From Flagellimonas abyssi (GTDB lineage Bacteria > Bacteroidota > Bacteroidia > Flavobacteriales > Flavobacteriaceae), in assembly GCF_019457905.1 (NCBI RefSeq), contig NZ_JAHZSV010000013.1, positions 62,001 to 126,000 on the forward strand: DNA of 64,000 bases. Reading direction: 5' to 3'. Below, piece after piece: positions 11,548 to 12,181 of this stretch. Each line of letters begins with the position of its first letter. The stretch's first letter is position 1. The position numbers were made by a program, and so were the translations under genes. The notes beneath the pieces were generated by a model. The model ran no database searches, was not told where the DNA came from, and worked only from the letters and a program-made list of their open reading frames with translations.

Positions 11548-11569
11548 GAAATTTCACATCAAAACATAG

Positions 11570-11597
11570 AAAGCCTTCAGTAATGGAGGCTTTTTTT
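11570..11597 (+). terminator. Terminator after the prolyl isomerase gene
   Basis: The 9-bp stem AAAGCCTTC with GGAGGCTTT contains one T-G wobble and is followed by seven or more T. The T run overlaps the stop codon of a minus-strand microprotein. Confidence 0.8.
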
Positions 11598-11679
11598 ATT
11601 TGGCCCGGTTTACGCTCAAAAACAATAAACAGGCGTTAAGTGCGAGTAGTGCAACAAGAATGCTTAAAAAAGTTGTCAT
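11596..11679 (-). CDS. Single-membrane-segment microprotein B, 27 aa
   Basis: A very short frame, beginning MTTFLSILVALLALNACLLF and ending LSVNRAK. It has one hydrophobic segment at about residues 4-21, and a small basic tail, as in bacterial small membrane proteins. Fourteen of 27 positions are identical to the microprotein encoded 72 bp upstream on the same strand (M-TF, LL, NA, LL, SVN and the terminal K). That similarity across a duplicated region is the main reason to think both are real genes. Its stop lies in the T run of the opposing terminator. I do not recognise the family and know of no function. Confidence 0.6.
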   Translation of the reverse strand: MTTFLSILVALLALNACLLFLSVNRAK

Positions 11680-11751
11680 GGTTGTAACGTGTTTATTAGG
11701 TAACAGTTCAACGGTAAAAAACCCTACCTATTGCCCTAATCGACTTTTTTG

Positions 11752-11838
11752 TTACTTTTTTGAACCATTGACACTCCATACCAATAGCAGGGCATTGACA
11801 ATCAATAAAAACGAAAGTACTCCGAAAAAGGTATTCAT
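11752..11838 (-). CDS. Single-membrane-segment microprotein A, 28 aa
   Basis: A short frame beginning MNTFFGVLSFLLIVNALLLV and ending WSVNGSKK, with one hydrophobic segment at about residues 4-21 and a lysine-rich end. It is a paralogue of the 27-aa microprotein just downstream: 14 identities over 27 aligned residues with no gap in the core. The pair lies between the cold-shock gene terminator and the prolyl isomerase terminator. No perfect -7 box was found upstream, so expression could come from read-through of the cold-shock transcript or from a divergent promoter. Function unknown. Confidence 0.6.
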   Translation of the reverse strand: MNTFFGVLSFLLIVNALLLVWSVNGSKK

Positions 11839-11931
11839 TTATTGTTAGGTTTATATGGTTATGGGGAACAGTGTTTGTTTATTCCTTAGATAGGAAACTT
11901 TGGAATGGTTGCGTAGAATTTGAAAAAAAGC

Positions 11932-11961
11932 AAAAAAAAGCCTGGGCAAAAGCCCAGGCTT
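11932..11961 (-). terminator. Terminator after the cold-shock gene
   Basis: A perfect 10-bp stem, AAGCCTGGGC with GCCCAGGCTT, has an AAAA loop. An A run on the plus strand gives a U tract for the minus-strand transcript. Confidence 0.88.
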
Positions 11962-11986: not shown

Positions 11987-12181
11987 CTAATCCGCAACTT
12001 GTACGTTAACGGCGTTCAATCCTTTTTTACCTTGTTGTAGTTCGAATTCTACAACGTCACCTTCTCTGATTTCATCGATTAAACCTGAAATGTGTACGAA
12101 GTGATCTGTGTTTGAACCATCTTCAGTGATAAATCCGTAACCTTTAGAATCATTGAAGAATTTTACTGTTCCTTTACTCAT
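11987..12181 (-). CDS. Cold-shock protein (CSD family)
   Basis: A 64-aa cold-shock domain protein starting MSKGTVKFFNDSKGYGFI. RNP1 is KGYGFI and RNP2 is DHFVHIS, and the C-terminus GKKGLNAVNVQVAD is typical. It binds single-stranded nucleic acid and probably acts as an RNA chaperone. The gene has its own promoter (-7 box at 12211, about 30 bp upstream) and a strong terminator at 11932. The RNP2 histidine-for-valine variation is common in Bacteroidota members. Confidence 0.93.
   Translation of the reverse strand: MSKGTVKFFNDSKGYGFITEDGSNTDHFVHISGLIDEIREGDVVEFELQQGKKGLNAVNVQVAD

What the first reader, a model, noticed from the sequence alone, without database searches (positions are those of the whole stretch)
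11596..11838. Tandem paralogous membrane microproteins (27 and 28 aa)
Two minus-strand frames, 72 bp apart, encode single-helix proteins with 14 of 27 aligned residues identical (M-TF, LL, NA, LL, SVN, K). A region of this length between two terminators would not yield two related hydrophobic frames by chance. They are short enough to be missed by standard gene callers. A membrane role, perhaps as a small regulatory partner or in envelope stress, is inference.
Basis: partly seen in the sequence, partly recalled or inferred. Interest (0 to 1): 0.72.

Follow-up and report, generated by a model that had tools for sequence, protein, structure and literature searches.

The report
Tandem membrane microproteins with stress promoters
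Two tiny neighbouring genes in a marine bacterium encode related 27- and 28-residue membrane proteins of an unnamed family, and one of them carries the same promoter sequence as the gene for a predicted cell-envelope stress regulator, so it is probably switched on when the cell surface is disturbed.

Summary
Both minus-strand frames exist, 72 bp apart, 14 of 27 residues identical. They are real genes: both were read in 28 of 28 selected same-genus loci (Flagellimonas/Muricauda), with dN/dS about 0.10 (A) and 0.16 (B) in close pairs. They belong to a family of small single-helix proteins (M..FF..L..LL..N..LL..S.N), seen here only in Flavobacteriaceae, with no match above a Pfam or NCBIfam cut-off.

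New: each gene has its own conserved promoter-like element. A has ACGCAACC-N14/15-[TC]ATCT. [quoted passage not shown] B has another element, GTAGGGT-N15-TGTTA. Of 140 short family genes, 65 carry the first, 62 the second, none both, 13 neither by the strict pattern.

So A very probably belongs to a small envelope-stress-like ECF regulon, and B is its separately controlled paralogue. Both are probably inner-membrane helices that act on a membrane partner. Expression, stress signal, partner and effect are inferred, not shown.

The parts
11752..11838 (-). Gene A, 28 aa, MNTFFGVLSFLLIVNALLLVWSVNGSKK; one hydrophobic helix, neutral N-terminus, Lys-rich C-terminus
   Evidence: conserved frame, start and stop; dN/dS 0.096 in 40 close pairs
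11596..11679 (-). Gene B, 27 aa, MTTFLSILVALLALNACLLFLSVNRAK; paralogue of A
   Evidence: conserved frame; dN/dS 0.155 in 15 close pairs; 14 of 27 identical to A
11887..11914 (-). Motif 1, putative ECF-type promoter of A: ACGCAACC (11907-11914), 14 nt, TATCTA (11887-11892); 48 nt before the A start codon
   Evidence: alignment; ACGCAACC in 28 of 28 and the full element in 27 of 28 genus loci; place
11701..11727 (-). Motif 2, putative promoter of B: GTAGGGT, 15 nt, TGTTA; 21 nt before the B start codon
   Evidence: full element in 28 of 28 genus loci; place
11938..11961 (-). Intrinsic terminator of the upstream cold-shock gene, separates it from A
11987..12181 (-). Cold-shock-domain protein gene, 64 aa (conserved neighbour, not part of the system)
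   Evidence: CspE/CspC-like below cut-off in NCBIfam; neighbour in most genus loci, absent next to A in L021, L035, L036
10615..11547 (+). Cyclophilin + FKBP-type peptidyl-prolyl isomerase gene, 310 aa, convergent neighbour
   Evidence: below NCBIfam cut-offs; neighbour in all genus loci listed
11568..11595 (+). Terminator of the FKBP gene; ends next to the stop codon of B

Best explanation
A and B are two real, paralogous single-pass inner-membrane microproteins. They probably sit with the N-terminus outside and the short basic C-terminus inside. A is transcribed from its own ECF-type promoter (motif 1). That promoter is read by the recA-linked ECF sigma factor, whose operon carries the same element. 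The sigma factor is probably held by the operon's last product, a protein with a cytosolic N-terminus, one membrane helix, a long tether and an outer-membrane barrel, and is freed when the envelope is disturbed; A is then made. B is transcribed from a second, different conserved promoter (motif 2) under another, unknown signal. Each protein would act by packing its polar face (Asn15, Ser22, Asn24) against a helix of a membrane partner and changing its activity or stability. Shown by sequence: genes, selection, family, both elements, the shared element at the sigma operon. Inferred: that motif 1 is a promoter for this sigma, topology, stress signal, partner and effect.
For: Coding and selection. 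Family. Motif 1 at A: ACGCAACC in 28 of 28, full element 27 of 28 genus loci; motif 2 at B 28 of 28. Outside the window genus too: of 70 short family genes there, 32 have motif 1 and 27 motif 2; over all 140, 65 and 62, none both. Longer relatives are a contrast: motif 1 in 0 of 45 C-type and 1 of 36 other genes over 50 aa. In 11 genus genomes the looser pattern hits 32 places against 13 for the reversed pattern; 10 of 11 genomes have the A site. In the 5 genomes whose second site I read, it stands before lipoprotein, ECF sigma, TM+barrel beside recA (L317-L321). Sigma: Sigma70_r2 and r4_2 above cut-off; barrel: PF13568 above cut-off. Motif 1 stands before the operon in 26 of 27 best sigma relatives in other genera. 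Spacing of both elements is nearly fixed (27-28 and 26-27 nt). Tail charge is positive and N-terminal charge about 0 for the 56 motif-1 and 62 motif-2 short genes without Cys.
Against: No RNA, protein or mutant data. The strict pattern misses 13 of 140 short genes; one lies at a contig end, six keep ACGCAAC with a changed -10, others look degenerate or unrelated. In genomes such as G063, G143, G199 and G087 the sigma operon has motif 1 but the family gene I saw there has no motif 1. No convincing family member was found in 15 genomes of g147/g151 although two g147 loci have the element 1.1-1.4 kb before the sigma. L335 has the operon without the element. The sigma of motif 2 is unknown; in the own genome a strict motif 2 occurs once with the right spacing, against 2 hits for the pattern and 6 for its reverse. 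The nine short Cys-bearing relatives have acidic tails (mean -4.7), which does not fit the same topology. The loci are related to each other, so counts are not independent events.
Confidence: 0.72

Rival explanations
1. Small hydrophobic toxins of type I toxin-antitoxin pairs, kept in tandem and silenced by an antisense RNA.
For: Size, hydrophobicity and tandem duplication resemble Ldr/Ibs-type toxins (recalled).
Against: Kept at the same place next to the same neighbours across genera with strong purifying selection, unlike the patchy spread of such modules (recalled). The conserved noncoding blocks are explained as two sense promoters; no conserved block suggests an antisense promoter. No Rfam family at the locus reached its gathering score.
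Confidence: 0.06
2. Leader or attenuator peptides whose translation, not product, matters.
For: Short frames near a terminator; weak sub-threshold hits to leader families at both terminators.
Against: Residues are conserved while synonymous sites are near saturation; the family has members with 30-residue tails with a conserved C-terminal YKKAV/I; each gene has its own promoter and B is followed by a convergent gene, so there is nothing downstream to attenuate.
Confidence: 0.04
3. A structural or assembly subunit of a constant membrane complex, with the alternative promoters only tuning its amount.
For: C-type relatives have a housekeeping-like TAnnTTTG box (38 of 45), and the family is seen beside unrelated genes, so the partner is probably encoded elsewhere and common.
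Against: The two short paralogues keep two distinct non-housekeeping elements over many genera, which fits conditional use better.
Confidence: 0.2
4. Motif 1 is the binding site of another regulator and not the promoter of the recA-linked ECF sigma.
For: No expression data; one operon without it (L335).
Against: Fixed spacing of 27-28 nt, AAC in the upstream half and TCTA (GTCTA in L063, L140) in the downstream half are ECF hallmarks (recalled), 22-54 nt before most start codons, and the element sits before the sigma's own operon in 26 of 27.
Confidence: 0.15

Closest known systems
[quoted passage not shown] the 2024 PNAS paper is not held)
   Same: Operon order sigma then a protein with N-terminal cytosolic part, one TM helix, long tether, C-terminal barrel; Bacteroidota only in that paper's words
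   Different: The paper's passages name no microprotein target and no promoter element; here the sigma lies beside recA, often with a lipoprotein gene first; ECF21 membership not tested
Sigma-E regulon of Escherichia coli with its small RNAs (recalled)
   Same: Small autoregulated ECF-type regulon; in 6 of 9 genus genomes a third site starts a putative short RNA
   Different: Anti-sigma of another build; target here is a microprotein; no regulon measured
MgrB, AcrZ, MgtS, KdpF type small membrane regulators (recalled)
   Same: Single helix, under 60 residues, at least one of them stress-induced, act on a membrane partner
   Different: No sequence relation tested or claimed; partner unknown; tandem paralogues with two promoters
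F. psychrophilum sigma motifs SM4-SM6 (PMC9723704, passages read)
   Same: ECF-type promoters known in the family; [quoted passage not shown]
   Different: The passages do not print a GCAAC upstream box (term 'gcaac': 0 hits) and tie SM6 to T9SS genes

Membership tests
Conserved Flavobacteriaceae microprotein family (defined here) | M..[FI]..xxL..LL..N..LL..S.N in one short frame | tested here: met
   alignments A1 and A3; both A and B are rows
Any curated protein family | Score above curated cut-off | tested here: not met
   A and B: Pfam 0 hits at E<=10; NCBIfam none above cut-off; PHROGs best E 0.39; PDB profile best E 0.34
ECF sigma regulon of the recA-linked sigma | Same promoter element at target and at the sigma operon | tested here: met
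ECF sigma regulon of the recA-linked sigma | Transcription of A depends on the sigma | not testable with these tools
   no expression data
Dma/Das system (for the sigma operon, not for A/B) | ECF sigma gene next to a TM + tether + OM-barrel protein | tested here: met
   Pfam Sigma70_r2/r4_2 and OMP_b-brl_2; layout by eye; barrel protein or part of it found in 29 of 29 best loci
Dma/Das system (for the sigma operon, not for A/B) | Sigma belongs to ECF21 | not tested
   NCBIfam gave only broad sigma-70/ECF superfamily above cut-off
Type I toxin | Antisense RNA antitoxin and toxicity | not testable with these tools
   no conserved antisense element seen
Lipoprotein | Lipobox Cys at the helix end and basic N-terminus | tested here: not met
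   A and B have Val at that place and no N-terminal charge; relatives at other loci have Ser-Cys

The most novel reading that the evidence does not exclude
A family-wide Flavobacteriaceae envelope-stress output has gone unannotated: one microprotein scaffold is wired to different alternative promoters, with A answering a dual membrane-spanning anti-sigma system and B a second stress input, and A feeds back on that system in the inner membrane, for instance by packing against the single helix of the barrel-tethered anti-sigma factor.
Probability: 0.15. Interest if true: 0.82.

Novelty: new variant of a known kind. Interest (0 to 1): 0.62.

Why it matters
Very small membrane proteins are hard to find and Bacteroidota stress regulons are poorly mapped. 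[quoted passage not shown] The claim can be tested with one sigma deletion and one reporter.

Tried and rejected
Family names: Pfam, NCBIfam and PHROGs gave nothing above cut-off for A or B, and the PDB profile search gave only chance hits to CP43. The C-type gene was first taken as a fluoride-channel helper because it precedes crcB; rejected, since in some loci crcB is absent or far away and the gene stays (L176, L179). A weak fourth hit in the own genome (G000:C2:168398, E 0.257) showed no family-like gene in the frames listed. Rfam at the locus: only sub-gathering hits. Strict motif 1 with TATCTA occurs once in the own genome and a shorter pattern six times against four for the reverse, which first suggested no regulon; loosening the -10 box and comparing genomes showed the sigma operon. 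Four of the six hits were not followed up. Papers: searches found no description of these microproteins; only passages of PMC9723704, PMC13088901 and PMC12045153 were seen. No structure prediction was run: A and B are below 30 residues and the C-type and sigma-operon proteins came from loci that the tool does not admit.

Full report
What is there. The window holds two minus-strand frames, A (11752-11838, 28 aa) and B (11596-11679, 27 aa), 72 bp apart. They share 14 of 27 residues. Upstream is a cold-shock gene with its own terminator, downstream a convergent peptidyl-prolyl isomerase gene. None of 3000 shuffles gave two frames this alike.

They are genes. A search of 59 genomes found relatives in all 36 genomes of the window's genus, own genome included, though not always of A or B themselves; elsewhere only 3 weak hits (39 of 59 in all). 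In 28 of 28 chosen genus loci both frames are intact. Synonymous sites are near saturation while replacements are rare: pN/pS 0.22 and 0.24 over 378 pairs, dN/dS 0.096 (40 pairs) and 0.155 (15 pairs) among close ones. Named relatives place the genus as Flagellimonas/Muricauda/Allomuricauda. Of 80 named loci fetched by the neighbouring isomerase gene, 21 hold two family frames and 11 hold one in the 2.5 kb after that gene, at 17 bits or more; one more has a weak frame (L162) and one has too little sequence (L104). They include Cellulophaga, Arenibacter, Maribacter, Zobellia, Croceitalea, Eudoraea and Pricia; 17 of 18 loci named Flavobacterium have none.

A family. A profile finds matches in 106 of 299 family genomes at E<=0.01, the weaker of which may be chance. 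Searches drawn from the order and the phylum gave 10 of 246 and 6 of 247 genomes, all hits in the same family; how many of those genomes lay outside the family was not shown. A 59-aa C-type paralogue lies 41 kb away in the own genome, 16 bp before a crcB-like gene; among the 30 best C-type loci 29 hold at least one of the expected neighbours (MazG-like, 62-aa TM protein, CrcB, GlnK, AmtB, aminotransferase; names by eye) and the other is cut by a contig end. C-type tails end in YKKAV/I in most rows. Another branch ends the helix in Ser-Cys-Asn and, in 8 of 10 loci read, sits next to a uracil-DNA-glycosylase-like gene, the other two next to a RecR-like gene (names by eye). A search with that branch matched 189 of 299 genomes at E<=0.001, including C-type genes. 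In 15 genomes of two genera (g147, g151) no convincing member was seen; matches there were mostly parts of longer frames, judged from the table only. The short-frame profile has no curated name.

Two promoters. An alignment of 28 genus loci shows two fixed noncoding blocks: ACGCAACC-N14/15-[TA]ATCT(A) before A and GTAGGGT-N15-TGTT(A) before B. ACGCAACC is in 28 of 28, the full first element in 27 of 28 (L029 has a changed -10), the second in 28 of 28. Over all deduplicated family genes in my loci (221 at 24 bits or more), 140 are short; 65 have motif 1, 62 motif 2, none both, 13 neither. Split: window genus 70 genes (33, 35, 2 neither), elsewhere 70 genes (32, 27, 11 neither). Of the 13, one is at a contig end, and several keep ACGCAAC with another -10 box, such as GCGTCTA in L063 and L140. 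All 9 short Cys-bearing genes next to the glycosylase have motif 1, so the element follows the family to another place in the genome. C-type genes instead carry a TAnnTTTG box (38 of 45), none has motif 1, and two at the RecR-like locus match motif 2.

The sigma factor. In 11 genus genomes the pattern ACGCAACC-N13-16-ATCT gives 32 hits against 13 for the reversed pattern; 10 of 11 genomes have the hit at A. The other recurring hits flank recA. In five genomes read, one stands before a lipoprotein gene, an ECF sigma gene and a TM + barrel gene (L317-L321). Pfam confirms sigma regions 2 and 4 and the barrel. The best relatives of this sigma in 29 genomes of 28 genera were fetched: 26 of the first 27 have motif 1 directly before the operon, L335 does not, and two of genus g147 have it 1.1-1.4 kb upstream, in the one I read (L351) before a lipoprotein-like gene that leads the operon. 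A weaker paralogue (L352) has none. I therefore read motif 1 as this sigma's promoter; this is inference from shared sequence, not expression.

How it may work. The barrel protein has the layout described for Dma proteins of Bacteroides, which hold ECF21 sigma factors and whose loss raises vesicle formation (PMC13088901, passages). By analogy an envelope signal frees the sigma, which makes more of its own operon and of A. A and B have a neutral N-terminus and a basic tail (mean tail charge 2.4 and 2.0), which by the positive-inside rule (recalled) puts the tail in the cytosol. The invariant Asn15, Ser22 and near-invariant Asn24 suggest a polar face that packs against a partner helix. What the partner is remains open; the family's changing neighbours suggest that it is encoded elsewhere.

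Limits. All regulation is read from DNA. Loci are related, so counts overstate independent events. The regulator of motif 2 is unknown. In some genera the sigma operon has motif 1 but the family gene seen there does not, so the wiring is not universal.

Noticed in passing
L317:5323-5467 (own genome, between recA and trhO): A third motif-1 site is followed by about 110 nt and a strong terminator with no sizeable frame: a putative sigma-dependent small RNA. Present in 6 of 9 genus genomes looked at, replaced by a lipoprotein gene in L319, absent in two; absent in 7 loci of other genera. Fold z-score -2.19, 5 of 200 shuffles as stable; no Rfam family at gathering score.
   Followed up: partly
L305:1150-1620 (minus): In one genus genome motif 1 and a motif-2-like element stand about 65 nt apart before a glycosyltransferase-like gene, with no microprotein frame between them.
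   Followed up: partly
L031:3076-3255 (minus): 59-aa C-type paralogue directly before a crcB-like gene, with a conserved C-terminal YKKAV/I and a long conserved housekeeping-type promoter.
   Followed up: partly
L204, L223, L225, L227, L228, L230, L231, L232 and L203: Short relatives with Ser-Cys at the helix end and, in most, an acidic tail: they might be tiny lipopeptides, but lack a basic N-terminus.
   Followed up: no
L317:3717-4160 (minus): Lipoprotein that leads the sigma operon in many genera but is missing in at least seven loci where motif 1 sits directly before the sigma; no Pfam family.
   Followed up: no
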